Shown here: positions 5,047-52,742 of the stretch, in pieces
Layout: each line of letters starts with the position of its first letter
How positions within the stretch are numbered: position 1 is the first letter of the stretch
Source of the DNA: an uncultured Nitrosospira sp.
GTDB lineage: Bacteria > Nitrospirota > Nitrospiria > Nitrospirales > Nitrospiraceae
Assembly: GCA_900696515.1 (NCBI GenBank)
Contig: CAADGK010000019.1
Location: 1 to 64,000, forward strand
DNA length: 64,000 bases
Direction: 5' to 3'
The notes under the pieces: generated by a model
Databases searched by the model: none
What the model was told of the DNA's origin: nothing
What the model saw: the letters and a program-made list of their open reading frames with translations, nothing else
Position numbers and translations under genes: made by a program

Positions 5047-5146
5047 GATTGGCTGCGGGAATCAGTGTGAAGGGACGGATTGTAAAGGAGCGAATTATCC
5101 TTGTAAACTAGCCGTTCCGCCCTTTGTGGCCCTGAGGAGGAGATCC

Positions 5147-5587
5147 ATGGCTGAACCGACAGAGGAAAGTCTCGAGAAAATTAGGAAGTTCATCTCGGGC
5201 TTTGCTGAAAAGAGTGGAACGGCGATGCATCCGAATGCCGCTGTGACGGACGCGGTCGTCAAAGGATTGGCGTCCCACATCGATGAACTGGGAAAACCGC
5301 TCTGTCCCTGCAATTTCTACAAGGACAAAGAAGCAGAAGCCAAGCTCCGACGCTGGATCTGCGCGTGCGACGAAATGCAAATCTACAAATACTGCCACTG
5401 CCTCCTGTTTGTGCGGGAAGATGGGATGCCGATTACCGAATATTTGCCGGATGGTCACGAAGGTCGCGAGGTCTACGGGGTGATCACGGATCCAACTCCC
5501 GACAAAGGTCGTGCCCTCAAGCACAAAGCGGTCCCGGTTCTCACTTCCCCAGACGAATCAACTACGGCATCGGCGTCCTCGACATGA
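5147..5587 (+). CDS. Ferredoxin-thioredoxin reductase catalytic-chain-like protein
   Basis: The 146-residue protein carries the complete cysteine pattern of the ferredoxin-thioredoxin reductase beta subunit: CPC at 53-55, CAC at 72-74 and CHC at 83-85, with the family spacing (16 and 8 residues). In that family four of these cysteines bind a 4Fe-4S cluster and two form the redox disulfide, passing electrons from ferredoxin to thioredoxin-like proteins. The ATG at 5147 follows GAGGAGGAGAT, a strong ribosome site. The gene is divergent from the VWA gene, and its stop overlaps the start of the next gene (ATGA). No variable (alpha) chain is next to it. The C-terminal tail is poorly conserved-looking. 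Confidence 0.85.
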   Translation: MAEPTEESLEKIRKFISGFAEKSGTAMHPNAAVTDAVVKGLASHIDELGKPLCPCNFYKDKEAEAKLRRWICACDEMQIYKYCHCLLFVREDGMPITEYLPDGHEGREVYGVITDPTPDKGRALKHKAVPVLTSPDESTTASASST

Positions 5588-26784: not shown

Positions 26785-26870
26785 GCCGAAGTGGTGGAAT
26801 GGCAGACACGCCAGCCTCAGGAGCTGGTGCTCGTAAGGGCGTCCGGGTTCAACTCCCGGCTTCGGCACCA
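26785..26870 (+). tRNA. tRNA-Leu (anticodon CAG)
   Basis: Acceptor arms GCCGAAG and CTTCGGC pair; the anticodon stem CCAGC/GCTGG encloses CTCAGGA with anticodon CAG. A long variable arm and T-loop GTTCAACTC are present, and CCA is encoded at 26868-26870. Its 3' end from 26854 on is one copy of the 18-bp att repeat, so this is the integration target of the element to its right, and integration restored an intact gene. Confidence 0.95.
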
Positions 26871-26871
26871 C
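26854..26871. repeat. att site, left copy (in tRNA-Leu)
   Basis: The 18-bp core TCCCGGCTTCGGCACCAC spans the T-arm end and acceptor/CCA of tRNA-Leu(CAG). The identical sequence at 31898-31915 marks the other end. The match stops exactly at both sides (26853 C versus 31897 A; 26872 C versus 31916 A). Confidence 0.9.
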
Positions 26872-26884
26872 CGTTCATTCCTGC

Positions 26885-28057
26885 CTAATTATTCAGTGAG
26901 TTAGAAAACCGTGCGGAAGCACGTGTTGCGGGGGTGTTAAGCCTGGCGTCCAGTCGGGCCATTGCAGCATCCAACCGGTCTGCCTTCACTGTGCGATATC
27001 GCAGGAACATTTCCACCGAGGAATGACCGACGATCTTCATGATGGTTTCAATCTCGACCCCTTCATCGGCTAGGTTGGTCACGGCACAGTGACGAAGGTC
27101 ATGAAAAACGAAGTCTTCAATCTTCTGTTCCTGGCACAGCCGCTGAACCTCTCGATAGGTATGGCTCAGTTTCCGCCCGTCCTTGTGAAAGACTAGGCCC
27201 TGAATGCGCGTGACGCCCTCAAGGCTCCGGTGACGTTGGAGTTCTCGCCGCAGGGTTGCCGTGATCGGTACCAGACGTTCCTGCCCCGTCTTCGTCAAGT
27301 GGCCTGGAAGGAAGATCCGTCCCTTCTCCAAGTCGACCCGATCCCACGTCAGGGTGAGAATCTCTTCTAACCGCATGCCGGTGTGGTAGCCGGTCAACAA
27401 TACCGGCTTGAACCAGTCAGGGGCCGCACCGTGGAGTCGTGCCCATTCCTCAGGCTCAAGGACGCGGCTTCTTGCGTTCTTCGGCTTAGGAGCCGCCACG
27501 AGAGAAGCAACGTTCCGCGTGATCAGATCCCGTTTCATCGCCAGTTTCAGCATGTGCTTGAGGTAATTGTGATCGACGTTCACGGTTCCGACCATATGCC
27601 CCTTGCTCCGTTCCTGCCGGAACGCCTCGACATCTTTCACGGTGATATCTTGAAGCAGACGATTGCTTCCAAAGAAGGGCACGATCACCTTGTCGATCCG
27701 CTGACAGCGTTCCCTGTAGGAGCGAATCCGCCTCACTTCTTCCGTAGCCTTGTATTCCTCGGCCCACTGGCCTAAGGCCATCACGGCTTTCTTGGCTCGC
27801 TCACTCTCAACGGCTCCGGCTAGGAGCTTGGTCCTAATGACGGCTTCTTGCTGCCGCGCCAGCGTCTTGTTGTCGCAACCGACCTTCCAACGCTTCAGCT
27901 TGGCTCCTGGCATGCGCTTAGTGAGCGTCAGCCGCTCCCCATCATCCAACACATAAAACTCGACGTAATAGGCCCAGGACTTCGGGCAAGGGCATTTTAA
28001 GCCCTTCACCCCATCCGGGCATCCCCGCGCACACTTACCCCTTCGCGTCAGTCCCAT
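26885..28057 (-). CDS. int: Tyrosine integrase of the element
   Basis: A 390-residue tyrosine recombinase. The catalytic set is complete: R229 (TGMRLEEIL), K256 (LTKTGQER), H319 and R322 (FHDLRH), H345 (IVGHSS) and nucleophile Y354 (MFLRYRT). A SAM-like core-binding domain lies at about 95-175. The N-terminus carries a small cysteine group C9, C13, C22, C24 (CARGC...KCPCP), which might bind zinc and contact the arm sites. Its stop is 15 bp from the tRNA end, as in many elements. The start overlaps the XRE gene by 23 bp. Confidence 0.94.
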   Translation of the reverse strand: MGLTRRGKCARGCPDGVKGLKCPCPKSWAYYVEFYVLDDGERLTLTKRMPGAKLKRWKVGCDNKTLARQQEAVIRTKLLAGAVESERAKKAVMALGQWAEEYKATEEVRRIRSYRERCQRIDKVIVPFFGSNRLLQDITVKDVEAFRQERSKGHMVGTVNVDHNYLKHMLKLAMKRDLITRNVASLVAAPKPKNARSRVLEPEEWARLHGAAPDWFKPVLLTGYHTGMRLEEILTLTWDRVDLEKGRIFLPGHLTKTGQERLVPITATLRRELQRHRSLEGVTRIQGLVFHKDGRKLSHTYREVQRLCQEQKIEDFVFHDLRHCAVTNLADEGVEIETIMKIVGHSSVEMFLRYRTVKADRLDAAMARLDARLNTPATRASARFSNSLNN

Positions 28058-28277
28058 GAGAACGTCCTCCCTTTCCCCGTGGTTCCCCCACGAGTTGATT
28101 TAAAGTGATATCGAGCGACCGACACAGCTTGAGCAAGGTTGAGAGTTGCGGATCCAGCTTCCCGGCCTCCAGCTTGATGATGCTGATGTAATGCACGCCG
28201 GACAAGTCGCCGAGCTTGCGTAGGCTCAAGCCCCGCTTCTCTCGCCATTCCCTCAGCCGTGTCTGCATGGGGTGCAT
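28035..28277 (-). CDS. XRE-family HTH regulator
   Basis: An 80-residue protein with a helix-turn-helix of the phage-repressor type (LREWREKRGLSLRKLGDLSGVHYISIIKLEAG). It is probably the element's repressor or int/xis controller. An alternative ATG is at 28268. It lies between the AlpA-like gene and int, overlapping int by 23 bp, so integrase expression depends on its translation. No ribosome site is obvious. Confidence 0.8.
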   Translation of the reverse strand: MHPMQTRLREWREKRGLSLRKLGDLSGVHYISIIKLEAGKLDPQLSTLLKLCRSLDITLNQLVGEPRGKGGRSHGTDAKG

Positions 28278-28286
28278 GGTAGTCTT

Positions 28287-28505
28287 TTAGCTACCTGTAA
28301 TCAAGGGGGTGGAGACCGAAAACGGTCGTCGAGCTTTCACCGATTGAGACGTAATCCAACGGTCAAGTTCGTACCGGTCGAACTTCGTCAGCCGACCGAG
28401 CTTCACAAAGGGAATGCGCCGTTGCGAGACCATCGTGTAGAGCGTATGGGGAGAAAGACCGGTGTACTCGGCCACTTCTTGGATATTCAGCAAACGGCGG
28501 GTCAT
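28287..28505 (-). CDS. AlpA/excisionase-like HTH protein
   Basis: The ATG at 28505 gives a 72-residue protein with a winged helix-turn-helix of the excisionase/AlpA family (RRLLNIQEVAEYTGLSPHTLYTMVSQRRIPFVKLGR). Such proteins bend DNA for excision and often control int. It overlaps or abuts its neighbours, consistent with one operon. An upstream ATG at 28523 is possible. Role in excision inferred from family and place. Confidence 0.8.
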   Translation of the reverse strand: MTRRLLNIQEVAEYTGLSPHTLYTMVSQRRIPFVKLGRLTKFDRYELDRWITSQSVKARRPFSVSTPLITGS

Positions 28506-28526
28506 GGATGAAGGCTCACGCATGTC

Positions 28527-28835
28527 CTATGTGCCTACAGATCCCTGTGTACCCTCGGAGTGCTTCTCGATCATCACGGGCTGTTTTCTGGAGGGTGACG
28601 GCTCGATGATGACATTAATCGTCCGATCTTCCTCAGAGCGCAGTTCAGCAGGAATGAGCCTAGCCGCAATCCGATAGTATTCGGTAGGATTCTCCCGTGC
28701 CCATGCGAGGAACGCCGCGTGTCCGCCGAGACCGTCATAGACGACTTGCACGGCTTCTCGAAACTGGCCCGTGAATCGATTTGGCGTCCCAGATTGTCGA
28801 CCTCCGGTCTTGGATTTGCCTGGTTGGAAAGGCAT
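28527..28835 (-). CDS. DUF5681-like phage-type protein (102 aa)
   Basis: The N-terminus (PFQPGKSKTGGRQSGTPNRF) matches the basic start of the DUF5681 family, found mostly in phages and near terminase genes. The rest contains AFLAWARENPTEYYRIAARLIPAEL, a helical stretch. It could bind DNA; a small-terminase-like packaging role is a guess only. It lies between a hypothetical gene and the excisionase-like gene. Confidence 0.6.
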   Translation of the reverse strand: MPFQPGKSKTGGRQSGTPNRFTGQFREAVQVVYDGLGGHAAFLAWARENPTEYYRIAARLIPAELRSEEDRTINVIIEPSPSRKQPVMIEKHSEGTQGSVGT

Positions 28836-28857
28836 TCTGTTTCCCTCTGTTTTAGAT

Positions 28858-29205
28858 TCAGCGAATCAGTTCTATTTCTTGGAGTTCTCGTTGGTTCAGA
28901 AACGCTTTGTGTGATCGCAATCGATCCGCATTGATCCAGCGGATCTGTCCCTCAAACGTCACACTGACCCAAAAGGTATTGCCGTCTTTACCCAGGAATT
29001 CCGGCACCGCTGGCCCCAGGATTCGACCATCACCCGTTTCCCAGTAGATCGGTCGGGTATTCGGGGCGGCGGGTTGACACTGGAATTTCTTGTCTGAGAG
29101 AGAGGCGGTATTCTCCCCGGCTGCTATGGGGTCCGCCATGGGCGCAGGTCCCTGCTTCGGGTGAGCCAGAATGGCCCGGGCTTTGTCCAAGAGTGCTTTA
29201 CTCAT
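28858..29205 (-). CDS. Hypothetical protein of the element (115 aa)
   Basis: Not recognised. The protein is basic and soluble, with a low-complexity start (ALLDKARAILAHPKQGPAP) followed by a domain with NTRPIYWETGDGRILGPAVPEFLG and WVSVTFEGQIRWINADRLRS, which looks like a small beta-rich module. It is the first gene after the iteron region. The ATG at 29205 follows a purine-rich run ending in AGGGGGGTATAGGCA. Its neighbourhood suggests replication or packaging use, but no motif shows it. Confidence 0.55.
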   Translation of the reverse strand: MSKALLDKARAILAHPKQGPAPMADPIAAGENTASLSDKKFQCQPAAPNTRPIYWETGDGRILGPAVPEFLGKDGNTFWVSVTFEGQIRWINADRLRSHKAFLNQRELQEIELIR

Positions 29206-29225
29206 TGCCTATACCCCCCTGTAAG

Positions 29226-29316
29226 TGGAACATCTGGAACATCTGGAACGCCTCATAAGTCATTGTATTCATAAGCTAATATCACTTATTTCCCGTTCCA
29301 TGTTCCGGTTGTTCCA
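29226..29316. repeat. Iteron-flanked AT-rich region, candidate replication origin
   Basis: Three TGGAAC units at 29226, 29235 and 29244 (9-bp period TGGAACATC) face three GTTCC units at 29295, 29302 and 29311. Between them is a mostly A/T core of about 45 bp (29250-29294), with ATAAGT and ACTTAT as an inner inverted pair (29255-29260 and 29284-29289). All pairs are nearly centred on 29271-29272. Satellite origins of the SaPI type have iteron clusters on both sides of an AT-rich core. The right arm overlaps the ATPase gene's 3' end. A simple long hairpin is the alternative. Confidence 0.6.
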
Positions 29317-30694
29317 GATTCCCGGGGGTATAACGGCGAGCGAGATCGTCAATCTGGGTCCTAGTGAACTGATACCCGCGTTGATTGGTTTGCCCTTCCC
29401 GCCAGCGAGAGGACTTCAACCCGAGCGGATGAAGACGGTTTGCAAGTGCCTTCAAGGTAAGGGAGTCCCACCCGAGCCGGGTCCGTACTTTCTCAGCGAG
29501 ATCCTCCGCCCTGATCTTCCCTTCCGCCCCAAAACCCAGGCATTCATCCAGGACTTCAATAATGATTGGGTTCGGGTCATCGGCGGAGCGTGAGGCTCGA
29601 TCCCCGCCAAGACGTGCCGCGAGGTGAATCATTCTGTCGGTTAAGGTTCCGGTTCCACCGCTCGCATCAATCACCGCAGCGATTGAGAGAAGCGGTTCCC
29701 AGAGATCCACCGCCCGATGATCGAGGTCTGACAGACCGGGAAATTCTGATCCGTCGTACAGCTCCGCAATGGTTGGAGCCATCGTTAACGCGAATATGTG
29801 GAGGTCGTCCCGGAGAATCTGGGCTTGAGCATCAAGCCGACGAAGGCTGAACCGTTCCGTTTTCTGTCCAGGGAGTAGGCGTTGCATCATGACCATGATC
29901 GAGCGATCCTCGAGGGTGGTTTCTAGAGCGGAAATCGAGGCAATCGCTCTCGGCACATAGGTTTCAAACGTTTCTTTTTGTTGCCCCTGAGCGGATTTTC
30001 GGTATCGTGCAACCGACTGCCCTCGATGGAAGCCACTGTTTAAGATCTGCGTCACTGCGCTCCATCGCTCTTTGTCTCCTGTCATCCCTTCCATCTCGTC
30101 GTAGATTTGAACGCCTCCGTCCTCCCGTGGCTCACGGAATATTTGCGCTTCTGTTGGAGAGGCTGTTGGCTGGTGGGCGTTGAACCCGAGCATGGAAATG
30201 AGGTCTAAGGTCCGCGACTTCCCGCAACGTTTCTCAGGCGACCGCAACACGAGGTAGGGGAAGTATTCAAAGACCGAATAGCAGTAGGTCCCCATCAGCC
30301 ACAGGGCAAGCAGTGGTGGAAGATCCTCCCCCATCACCACGAATCGATGAAGGAACGTTTCAACCTGTTCAAAGAGATCCGGCCCCGAAATAGCATCGCC
30401 TCGTAAGAATCGCCTGATCCCATCCTTCGAGAACCGGACATTCGAGAGGCCATAATTCACGGCCCCAAAGTCTTCAGCGGAAACAATCTCACGATCCCCG
30501 CGTACGACGTAGGGCTGTCCATCAAGCAGCACGCCGCTGCTCAGGTGTCCGTCGCGAAAGTCTTGGGGCAGTCGGGGTGCCGGGAGCGCGTCCGGCCCAT
30601 CAAGCAAATGCGCGAAGCGCACCAATGGAGAGGACACCCCGCTCAATAGGGGTGCTGCTGCCAACTCTTCGACTTCCTCAACGCTAGGCTGCAT
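29282..30694 (-). CDS. DUF3631-type helicase/ATPase of the element
   Basis: A 470-residue P-loop protein. Walker A is SPEKRCGKSRT (152-162) and Walker B is VQIYDEMEG (195-203). The C-terminal part has the DUF3631 pattern (LDHRAVDLWEPLLSIA, then ADDPNPIIIEVLDECLG). DUF3631 proteins are common in primase-helicase operons of mobile elements. It follows the CHC2 gene with an 11-bp overlap. Together they resemble a split replication initiator. Helicase activity is inferred from the family. Confidence 0.75.
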   Translation of the reverse strand: MQPSVEEVEELAAAPLLSGVSSPLVRFAHLLDGPDALPAPRLPQDFRDGHLSSGVLLDGQPYVVRGDREIVSAEDFGAVNYGLSNVRFSKDGIRRFLRGDAISGPDLFEQVETFLHRFVVMGEDLPPLLALWLMGTYCYSVFEYFPYLVLRSPEKRCGKSRTLDLISMLGFNAHQPTASPTEAQIFREPREDGGVQIYDEMEGMTGDKERWSAVTQILNSGFHRGQSVARYRKSAQGQQKETFETYVPRAIASISALETTLEDRSIMVMMQRLLPGQKTERFSLRRLDAQAQILRDDLHIFALTMAPTIAELYDGSEFPGLSDLDHRAVDLWEPLLSIAAVIDASGGTGTLTDRMIHLAARLGGDRASRSADDPNPIIIEVLDECLGFGAEGKIRAEDLAEKVRTRLGWDSLTLKALANRLHPLGLKSSRWREGQTNQRGYQFTRTQIDDLARRYTPGNLEQPEHGTGNK

Positions 30695-31190
30695 GGCGGT
30701 TGGTCCTTTCGTGAAAGGCTTTCAGCCTGAAGTCATCGGCCACGGTTTCCAGGAATTCGGCTTGGTCTCTGTCGGCATAGGCACGAGCAACCACCTTCAT
30801 GAGTCGATCCCGATCTTCGTCGCTCAAATTATCGCCATTGAAATTCTCGACAGCCTTGAGAGTCCATTCAGCTCTGAGCCGTCGGTCTAGTGCCGCCATT
30901 TCGAACCGGAAGGCCACGTCGACCAGATCGAGCTTCTGAAGCTTCGCAATTGGCCGTTGTCCGTGAGGGGTGGGTGAGTCGGTGAAGAGGTCTTTCAGGT
31001 CGAGTCCGAGTGCCCCCACAATCTCTTCCGGCGTGCATCCCCCAAAACAATGGAGCAGCACCTTGCCGTCGACTTCTCGAATCGATAGTGACGGCGACTT
31101 ATCCGGGTGTGCAGGGCAGCGAGCAGACCATTTGCCGTGTGCGCGAGAGCGAACACCATCGAGTCGGCTGAGCAAGTCGGTGATCGTCAT
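30684..31190 (-). CDS. CHC2 zinc-finger primase-like protein without TOPRIM
   Basis: A 168-residue protein. Residues 25-52 hold the CHC2-type zinc ligands: C25, H28 (CPAH), C48 and C52 (CFGGC). In DnaG-like primases a TOPRIM catalytic domain follows, but here the chain ends after a helical segment. So it may act only in DNA recognition and hand over to the ATPase, or a TOPRIM may come from the host. The gene overlaps its neighbour by 11 bp. Confidence 0.75.
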   Translation of the reverse strand: MTITDLLSRLDGVRSRAHGKWSARCPAHPDKSPSLSIREVDGKVLLHCFGGCTPEEIVGALGLDLKDLFTDSPTPHGQRPIAKLQKLDLVDVAFRFEMAALDRRLRAEWTLKAVENFNGDNLSDEDRDRLMKVVARAYADRDQAEFLETVADDFRLKAFHERTNRHAA

Positions 31191-31399
31191 GGCGTCACCG
31201 CCTTATCCAAAGCCTTGCGGAGTTCACCTACTTGCCAGGCGCACGCCCGATTGAAATGCTTGCGTGGTTTTGGAATGCGACCAGACTTGACCCCACGCCA
31301 GACAGTCGCTTCGCTGCACGCGAATAGAGCCGCGACGACTGGAAGACGGACATGTGCGGAGTCTGGGAGAGAGTCGAAATTCCTGAGAGGTTCCTGCAT
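31187..31399 (-). CDS. AlpA-like HTH protein, first gene of the element operon
   Basis: The ATG at 31399 follows GGAGGATTCGCCG, a strong ribosome site, giving 70 residues with a helix-turn-helix pattern (RLPVVAALFACSEATVWRGVKSGRIPKPRK). The stop overlaps the CHC2 gene's start by 4 bp. An upstream ATG at 31504 adds 35 poorly conserved-looking residues and has no better ribosome site. It may be a regulator or excision factor. Confidence 0.65.
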   Translation of the reverse strand: MQEPLRNFDSLPDSAHVRLPVVAALFACSEATVWRGVKSGRIPKPRKHFNRACAWQVGELRKALDKAVTP

Positions 31400-31538
31400 C
31401 GGCGAATCCTCCAGGGGTGCGAGGTCCGCCGAAAAAAGAAACCGCCTGACAGCGAACATCCACACCCCGCTAGGGGTTGAAAGTCTGCCGCTGTCGGCGG
31501 CCATGTGCGGAAACTAACCTTAAAACGAAACGACTTAC

Positions 31539-31567
31539 TGTTTACATGAGGTCTCAGATCGTGTCAA
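31539..31567 (-). promoter_or_regulatory. Possible sigma70 promoter of the element operon
   Basis: Reading leftward, TTGACA (complement of 31562-31567) is followed after 17 bp by TAAACA (complement of 31539-31544), a weak -10. It lies upstream of the HTH gene. The -10 is only a half match, so this is tentative. Confidence 0.4.
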
Positions 31568-31743
31568 GGAACGTCAGGAGCAAACTCGTTCGAGATTCAG
31601 TCGCAACGAGGTTTCCTTTTCTCTGCACACGAATATGGGAAAGCCCCCGGGGTCTTTCTGATGGTGCGCTGGATGCAATGCGCCATACCGAGAGGCTCAA
31701 CGAGGCTACCCCGGCGTCGACAACATGCCCGGGGGGTCTTCCT

Positions 31744-31821
31744 CCAGGTGTTGCCCAGGTGTTACATTTGGCGGCAGATTCAGCCGAACCGGACCAAAGA
31801 GCGACAAAGAGAAACAAAGAG
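31744..31821. repeat. Phased short repeats near the distal att site
   Basis: Two CCAGGTGTT units (31744-31752 and 31755-31763) are spaced 11 bp. Three CAAAGAG units (31795-31801, 31805-31811, 31815-31821) are spaced exactly 10 bp. Tandem sites at helical spacing next to an att site are typical of arm sites for tyrosine integrases or Xis. No protein was tested. Confidence 0.55.
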
Positions 31822-31847
31822 CATGTCCGCATGTATCAAGGGGATAA

Positions 31848-31889
31848 GTGGGAATCACCGCTCCCATCAAGGGCTTCAGCGATTCCCAC
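31848..31889. repeat. Inverted repeat beside the distal att site
   Basis: GTGGGAATC (31848-31856) and GATTCCCAC (31881-31889) are perfect reverse complements 24 bp apart, ending 9 bp before the att copy. It may bind integrase or form the end of an RNA. Confidence 0.5.
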
Positions 31890-31897
31890 CTTTCCTA

Positions 31898-31915
31898 TCC
31901 CGGCTTCGGCACCAC
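31898..31915. repeat. att site, right copy
   Basis: Identical 18-bp copy of the tRNA-Leu 3' end (TCCCGGCTTCGGCACCAC). It marks the far boundary of the element; ordinary chromosome resumes after it. Confidence 0.9.
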
Positions 31916-50022: not shown

Positions 50023-50957
50023 GATGACTTGGGATCCTTTCCATGTGGCAGACGAGTCGCCTGTGCGCGAGGATGGGCTCGGTCGTAGACCGCGAGCAGT
50101 TGGTCCATCGCCACATGCGTATATTTTTGAGTGGTGCTCAGGGAGGCATGGCCGAGTAGTTCCTGGATCGATCGTAGATCGGCTCCTTCGTCGAGAAGGT
50201 GGGTGGCATATGAATGCCGGAGGGCATGGGGACTGACCGCGCCACTTACGAGACGGCTGGAGTACCGGGAGACCATCTTGGCGACACTTCTGGTAGTCAA
50301 CCGTCCACCACGATGATTCAGGAACATCGGAGACGACGGATGACGATTGCCAGGAGTCGGCTTCAAGGACCGGCGATACTCGCGGATGGCTTGCAACGCT
50401 ACATCGCCGATCGGGACCAGCCGTTCCTTACGACCTTTCCCTTTTAAGCTCACGATGCCGTCTGCTTCGTCCAGGTCATTGAGATTGATCCCGACGACTT
50501 CACTCACCCGCGCGCCGGTCGAATACATGGTTTCCAGCAGGGCACGGTCACGGAGCGAGAGAGGCAAGGGGCCAGTGGGAAATGCCATGAGGGCTGCCGC
50601 ATCATCCTTGGTGAGCACACGAGGGAGGCGTTTGGGGAGTCTCGGGCTCCTCAGCGTTTCAGTCGGATTGGTTTTTACGAGTTCTTCACGGAGGAGGAAG
50701 CGGAAGAAACTGCGCAGGCTCGCCAACTTTCTCGCCAGGGACGCCGCCTTCTCGCCTTGGCGATCCAGTGAGTGGAGATGGGCACGAATCTCGTCGCTGG
50801 TGATCGAGTCAACCGGAATGGATGAGCTGCCCTTCTTTGTGTTTCTGAGAAACCCGGTGAACTGCCGAAGATCTGAGCGATAGTTGCGGATCGTCTCAGA
50901 GGACGCATTGCGCTCGACCTGCAGGTACATTACGAAAGCCTTGATTGCGTCTTCCAT
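50019..50957 (-). CDS. xerC: Tyrosine recombinase XerC-type
   Basis: A 312-residue Xer recombinase that resolves chromosome dimers at dif. Catalytic residues appear in order: R in TGARVSEV, K in [21 protein letters not shown] in LLGHASLST and the nucleophile Y in QKYTHV. I chose ATG 50957, which has AGAGG upstream and overlaps trmFO by 28 bp. A longer frame upstream lies within trmFO in another frame. The Xer type is likely XerC by place. Confidence 0.9.
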
Positions 50958-52667: not shown

Positions 52668-52742
52668 GGGCGATTAGCTCAGTGGTAGAGCGCTTCCTTC
52701 ACACGGAAGAGGCCACAGGTTCGATACCTGTATCGCCCACCA
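52668..52742 (+). tRNA. tRNA-Val (anticodon CAC)
   Basis: Acceptor arms GGGCGAT/ATCGCCC, anticodon stem CTTCC/GGAAG with loop TTCACAC (anticodon CAC), T-loop GTTCGATAC and encoded CCA. A lipoprotein gene follows. Confidence 0.95.

What the first reader, a model, noticed from the sequence alone, without database searches (positions are those of the whole stretch)
26854..31915. Compact satellite-like integrative element in tRNA-Leu
An 18-bp direct repeat frames 5,044 bp with integrase, excisionase-like and XRE regulators, a DUF5681-like gene, a DUF3631-type ATPase, a CHC2 zinc-finger protein and a second HTH gene, all one way, plus an origin-like iteron array, but no capsid, tail, portal or large terminase. 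Gene logic resembles SaPI/PICI-type phage satellites, though the proteins are not those of the known groups. If true it would be a minimal satellite in a group from which such elements are little known.
Basis: partly seen in the sequence, partly recalled or inferred. Interest (0 to 1): 0.85.

Follow-up and report, generated by a model that had tools for sequence, protein, structure and literature searches.

The report
Minimal tRNA-Leu mobile island in Nitrospira
A 5-kb piece of DNA that inserts itself precisely into a leucine-tRNA gene of Nitrospira carries only genes for inserting, controlling and copying itself, while sister copies in other Nitrospira add anti-phage genes; it looks like a bare-bones hitchhiker that borrows another element, perhaps a phage, to travel.

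Summary
Confirmed: an 18-bp repeat (26854-26871 / 31898-31915) frames an integrative element at the 3' end of tRNA-Leu(CAG) in a Nitrospira genome. At least five relatives have exact empty sites. Three congeners carry sister elements at the same tRNA; their integrases are 87-92% identical in DNA although the neighbouring chromosomal gene is only 70-75% identical, so the element moves horizontally. Eight genes, all on the minus strand, encode an integrase, XRE and excisionase-like regulators, two small proteins, a DUF3631 ATPase, a CHC2 zinc-ribbon protein and an AlpA-like regulator. The ATPase is modelled as an MCM-fold AAA+ helicase beside a conserved iteron origin whose two repeat clusters change together in a diverged relative. 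Sister elements carry a dCTP deaminase or a helical REase between AlpA and the distal end; this copy has nothing there. It is a self-integrating, probably self-replicating, non-autonomous island. It works like a minimal phage satellite (closest: PICMI), but no packaging gene, cos/pac site or helper was found, and the host has four VirB4 loci, so conjugative mobilisation is a serious rival. It is not shown to belong to any defined satellite family. New variant of a known kind.

The parts
26785..26870 (+). tRNA-Leu(CAG), the attachment gene; left intact by the insertion
26854..26871 (+). attachment core, int-side copy (18 bp)
   Evidence: empty sites with a single copy in G006, G011, G019, G023, G067
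26923..26939 (+). arm repeat GTGTTGCGGGGGTGTTA, probable integrase arm site (int side, inside the 3' end of int)
   Evidence: 2 matches in 64 kb, 0.03 expected; conserved in sisters
26885..28057 (-). tyrosine integrase, 390 aa
   Evidence: PF00589 5.7e-25, phrog_1 2.6e-64
28035..28277 (-). XRE-type regulator, 80 aa (probable repressor)
   Evidence: HTH_3 3.4e-11
28287..28523 (-). HTH_17 excisionase-like protein, 78 aa
   Evidence: PF12728 6.7e-15, TIGR01764 excise over its cut-off
28527..28835 (-). DUF5681-like small protein, 102 aa, function unknown
   Evidence: no Pfam hit; phrog_11043 1e-5; conserved in sister elements
28858..29205 (-). conserved 115-aa protein, function unknown
   Evidence: homologues in G034, G017, G026, BO4, L151
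29210..29332 (.). putative replication origin: two inverted clusters of 9-bp iterons flanking an AT-rich spacer (left cluster runs into the 3' end of the ATPase gene)
29282..30694 (-). DUF3631 ATPase, 470 aa, modelled as MCM-fold AAA+ helicase
   Evidence: PF12307 2.2e-9; model pLDDT 73; VIA-align Z 17.9 to MCM
30684..31190 (-). CHC2 zinc-ribbon protein, 168 aa, no catalytic primase domain recognised
   Evidence: PF01807 1.2e-4, phrog_6088 DNA primase 1.8e-14; fused to DUF3631 in L113, L119
31187..31504 (-). AlpA-like regulator, 105 aa
   Evidence: PF05930 22.4 bits, cut-off 21
31505..31710 (.). cargo slot, empty in this copy
   Evidence: in G061 and G024 the cargo lies between AlpA and the distal arm
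31711..31897 (.). conserved distal attachment arm, with GTGTTGCCCAGGTGTTA at 31748-31764 and CAAAGAG x3 at 31795-31821
   Evidence: 83-88% identical in three sisters with different cargo
31898..31915 (+). attachment core, distal copy (18 bp)

Best explanation
It is a cargo-less member of a modular family of small, helper-dependent integrative elements of Nitrospira. Shown from sequence: precise insertion at the tRNA-Leu(CAG) 3' end, horizontal spread, shared attachment arms, exchange of replication genes and cargo between elements. Inferred: the XRE protein keeps it silent; on induction (AlpA-like and HTH_17 proteins) the integrase excises a circle; the MCM-fold DUF3631 helicase, with the CHC2 zinc-ribbon protein, opens the iteron origin at 29210-29332 and host or helper enzymes copy it; the copies are carried to new cells by a helper. 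The most likely helper is a phage, as for PICMI/PICI-type satellites, which would also explain anti-phage cargo in sister elements. Sub-estimates: mobile integrative element 0.95; replicates when excised 0.8; packaged by a phage 0.45.
For: Empty sites with one 18-bp core in five relatives. Sister elements at the same tRNA in G034, G061, G024; integrase DNA 87-92% identical against 70-75% for the adjacent chromosomal gene and 74-81% for a 16-kb block; absent from the closest relatives G006/G011 at 89-90%. Same arm repeat in both attachment arms. ATPase modelled as MCM-fold helicase, Z 17.9; Foldseek list includes the SaPIBov1 replication protein 8tch, PriRep1 7pds and the NrS-1 PrimPol helicase part. 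Iterons beside it conserved in five elements, with paired change in L151. Anti-phage cargo in sisters: dCTP deaminase 6e-155, helical REase 2e-12. [quoted passage not shown]
Against: No packaging gene, cos/pac site or helper identified; portal PF04860 and terminases PF03354/PF03237 absent from the own genome; close relatives of the helicase not found among IMG/VR contigs; no match in phage records. The own genome has four VirB4 loci. No read evidence for circles.
Confidence: 0.5

Rival explanations
1. An integrative mobilisable element moved by conjugation: it excises and replicates like an AICE or IME, and a resident conjugative element transfers it from an unrecognised oriT.
For: Four VirB4 loci in the own genome, one each in G024 and G034; DUF3631 is the RepAM initiator of actinobacterial integrative conjugative elements (PMC3218068); no resident HK97-type helper seen.
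Against: No relaxase or FtsK-type transfer gene in the element; carriers G061 (one contig) and G017 have no VirB4 hit; anti-phage cargo in sisters is at least as expected of satellites.
Confidence: 0.3
2. A decayed remnant that no longer moves; the missing cargo and packaging genes were lost.
For: This copy has the smallest content of the sisters with the helicase; degenerate tandem remnants exist at the same tRNA in G012 and the G004 helicase is broken.
Against: All eight genes are open, both cores and both arms are intact, and the iterons are complete.
Confidence: 0.12
3. A trimmed temperate phage: the integrase module of a Nitrospira prophage whose virion genes are lost or lie elsewhere.
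For: An IMG/VR contig carries a 79% identical integrase with a similar att core next to terminase small subunit, tape measure and tail genes.
Against: Sister elements with the same ends are conserved as small islands without recognised virion genes; that contig holds a second integrase, so it may be two adjacent elements.
Confidence: 0.05

Closest known systems
PICMI, phage-inducible chromosomal minimalist islands of Vibrionaceae (PMC10803314)
   Same: Very small island; integrase, AlpA and a replication gene as core; no capsid-remodelling, TerS or packaging gene; anti-phage genes carried.
   Different: PICMIs sit at fis and have a prim gene; this one sits at tRNA-Leu and has a split CHC2 protein plus MCM-fold helicase with an iteron origin; no helper phage known.
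PICI / SaPI
   Same: Integrase, regulator, replication initiator with helicase activity (8tch is among the fold matches), iteron origin next to the rep gene (SaPI origin layout recalled, not tested here).
   Different: No TerS, ppi or cpm homologue recognised; other host phylum.
P4-like satellites
   Same: tRNA-integrated, integrase, AlpA, helicase, slot with defence genes.
   Different: No psu, sid or delta; no P4 alpha-type primase.
AICE of the pMEA300 type, RepAM = DUF3631 (PMC3218068)
   Same: Integrase, excisionase-like protein and DUF3631 replication protein in a small tRNA-integrated element.
   Different: No FtsK/SpoIIIE transfer protein; not in Actinobacteria; CHC2 protein and AlpA present.

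Membership tests
tRNA-integrated mobile element (genomic island) | direct repeats at a tRNA end, integrase beside one, empty sites in relatives | tested here: met
PICMI | co-located int, alpA and prim | tested here: inconclusive
   int and AlpA met; only a CHC2 zinc ribbon and a helicase, no catalytic primase domain recognised
PICMI | integration at fis (called a hallmark by the authors) | tested here: not met
   inserted in tRNA-Leu(CAG) (PMC10803314)
PICMI / any phage satellite | induction and packaging by a helper phage | not testable with these tools
   needs phage or particle sequencing
P4-like satellite | psu, sid, delta present | tested here: not met
   no such Pfam or PHROG hit in any of the genes (components listed in PMC8628076)
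PICI | TerS or other packaging-redirecting gene | tested here: inconclusive
   none recognised; the DUF5681-like protein could not be settled: poor model, no fold match, though a sister's version hits a TerS PHROG weakly at 0.001
PICI | replication initiator with helicase fold and iteron origin | tested here: met
   fold and iterons by prediction and conservation only
AICE | FtsK/SpoIIIE-type transfer protein | tested here: not met
   no hit in any of the genes
Integrative mobilisable element | relaxase or oriT | tested here: inconclusive
   no relaxase recognised; oriT not searched
Prophage | virion genes (capsid, portal, terminase, tail) | tested here: not met
   none in the element, none recognised in the examined sister cargo

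The most novel reading that the evidence does not exclude
A new family of minimal phage satellites in Nitrospira: an eight-gene backbone with an MCM-fold helicase split from its primase zinc ribbon and an iteron origin, a cargo slot for anti-phage genes, and no dedicated packaging genes.
Probability: 0.4. Interest if true: 0.72.

Novelty: new variant of a known kind. Interest (0 to 1): 0.52.

Why it matters
Nitrospira carry out much nitrite oxidation and comammox (general knowledge), and their mobile elements are hardly described: the paper library held no report of satellites there (most subscription journals are missing from it). A modular island family that spreads between Nitrospira species and swaps anti-phage genes would show one way these slow growers acquire phage resistance. 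The cargo-less copy shows the smallest gene set the family keeps, which makes the question of what a hitchhiking element needs testable outside Vibrio and Staphylococcus.

Tried and rejected
TerS identity of the DUF5681-like gene: the AlphaFold model from three sequences was poor (pLDDT 54) and Foldseek gave nothing, so left open. Counting repeated 7-mers in the element against shuffles did not by itself single out the iterons (3 copies seen, 3 in most shuffles); the case rests on the tandem array, its position and its conservation. ORF 31554-31832 (92 aa) rejected as a gene: it overlaps the conserved attachment arm and has no family hit. The integrase relative in IMG/VR (L164) first looked like an excised circle or phage; a second integrase near the other contig end makes two adjacent elements at least as likely. 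PADLOC gave no hit for the tested cargo of G017, G026 and BO4. DNA match to phages: none. L163 (DUF5681-like match in IMG/VR): nothing else of the element matched there. Helicase matches in plasmids and phages were few and distant.

Full report
WHAT IS THERE. The window lies in a Nitrospira genome: the named records that share its helicase are Nitrospira and Nitrospiraceae MAGs. tRNA-Leu(CAG) is at 26785-26870. Its last 17 bases plus one are repeated exactly at 31898-31915, 5,044 bases on. Between the copies are eight genes, all on the minus strand: integrase, XRE regulator, HTH_17/excisionase-like protein, a DUF5681-like small protein, a conserved 115-aa protein, a DUF3631 ATPase, a CHC2 zinc-ribbon protein and an AlpA-like regulator. 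About 390 bases without a credible gene lie between AlpA and the distal repeat. GC content does not differ from the flanks.

IT IS A REAL INSERTION. Searching 117 related genomes with the left flank plus tRNA and with the right flank shows, in G006 and G011, that the two matches overlap by exactly the 18 repeated bases. The extracted sequences of G006, G011, G019, G023 and G067 hold one copy of the core, followed directly by sequence homologous to the window's right flank. These are empty sites.

IT MOVES BETWEEN SPECIES. G034, G061 and G024 carry sister elements at the same site, of about 6.0, 9.7 and 8.1 kb (in G034 the tRNA itself lies in a run of N). Their integrases are 92, 89 and 87% identical to the window's in DNA, while the gene on the other side of the tRNA is only 75, 70 and 73% identical, and pieces of a 16-kb chromosomal block are about 74-81% identical. 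The closest relatives, G006 and G011 (89-90%), lack the element. The distal attachment arm, 31711-31897, is 83-88% identical in the three sisters although their cargo differs. The motif GTGTTGCnnnGGTGTTA occurs twice in 64 kb, once in each arm, and variants are in both arms of every sister and of the element on contig 27 of the same genome; I read it as the integrase arm site.

IT IS MODULAR. Close relatives of the helicase and CHC2 genes (about 80-82% and 62-65% protein identity) occur in G017, G004 and Nitrospira sp. BO4 with other integrases or other tRNA genes: tRNA-Leu(TAA) in G017, tRNA-Phe in BO4. Conversely, related integrases sit with other replication genes: a DUF3854 protein in G024, a D5/DUF5906 protein in G000:C27. 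Cargo lies between AlpA and the distal arm: in G024 an anti-phage dCTP deaminase (PADLOC 6e-155), in G061 a DpnII-like helical REase (PADLOC 2e-12) plus proteins of unknown role and an FG-GAP protein. This window's copy has nothing there, so it is close to the bare backbone.

REPLICATION MODULE. A 27-sequence alignment gave an AlphaFold model with mean pLDDT 73 and the ATPase core mostly above 80. Foldseek against the PDB returned MCM helicases first, and further down the NrS-1 PrimPol helicase part, PriRep1 and the SaPIBov1 replication protein. VIA-align gave Z 17.9 (3.4 A over 253 residues) to an MCM subunit. The Walker A region (SPEKRCGKS, with G158 and K159 invariant) and Walker B (IYDE, with D199 and E200 invariant) are present. 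DUF3631 is the RepAM initiator of some actinobacterial integrative elements (PMC3218068). In two IMG/VR contigs CHC2 and DUF3631 are one protein, which supports that the two adjacent genes here work together. Directly behind the ATPase gene lies a stretch with GGAACAacCGGAACA, an AT-rich spacer, then TGTTCCA repeats at 9-bp period. The layout is kept in G034, G017, BO4 and, as far as read, G004. In the more diverged L151, GTTCC is replaced by GCCTC on one side and GGAAC by GAGGC on the other. Paired change of two separated repeat clusters is what a cognate binding protein would impose, so I call this the origin; replication itself is not shown. The left cluster lies in the ATPase coding end, so its conservation is partly a coding constraint, and L151 is one case.

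HOW IT TRAVELS IS OPEN. No terminase, capsid, portal, tail, relaxase, FtsK or T4SS gene was recognised in the element. In its own genome portal PF04860 and terminases PF03354 and PF03237 gave no hit, while four VirB4 loci are present. Carrier G061, a single contig, has no hit to any of these four models. PICMIs show that int, AlpA and prim suffice for a satellite packaged by a virulent phage without packaging genes of its own (PMC10803314), so absence of a resident prophage is no refutation. I put phage packaging at 0.45 and conjugative mobilisation at 0.3.

VERDICT. By the features tested, the element is not a PICMI (site), not P4-like (psu, sid, delta missing) and not an AICE (no FtsK-type transfer protein); PICI membership is inconclusive. 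It is a new variant of the helper-dependent, satellite-like integrative kind, in a genus where I found no published example in the library available.

Noticed in passing
L164 and L167 (IMG/VR record G117, 18.8 kb): An integrase 79% identical to the window's, with the same type of att core right behind it, then two terminase small subunits, a tape measure and tail genes, and a second integrase near the other contig end: two adjacent elements, or a phage using the same attachment site.
   Followed up: partly
L031 (G000:C27:1-10501): A second element of the same genome, about 10.3 kb, at another tRNA-Leu(CAG) gene, with a 70% identical integrase, a D5/DUF5906 helicase and a 596-aa tyrosine recombinase.
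   Followed up: partly
L153 (G024:C1), 5081-5223: Fragments of a second, related integrase lie just beyond the distal att of the sister element: trace of an earlier element at the same site.
   Followed up: no
L176 (G012:C3:66000-78500): Three attachment arms in a row (about 2.9 kb apart) behind tRNA-Leu(CAG), with decayed content: tandem remnants.
   Followed up: partly
L025 (G026:C128) and L029 (G089:C6): Elements with related integrases whose 40-41-bp repeats are the 5' end of tRNA-Pro and tRNA-Arg rather than a 3' end.
   Followed up: no
L023 (G004:C196): A relative of the helicase gene split by an in-frame stop or frameshift next to an intact CHC2 gene.
   Followed up: no
window 50064-50891 (-): Another tyrosine recombinase (508-aa frame, 26% to the element's integrase) in the window, about 1.8 kb from tRNA-Val at 52668-52742.
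   Followed up: no
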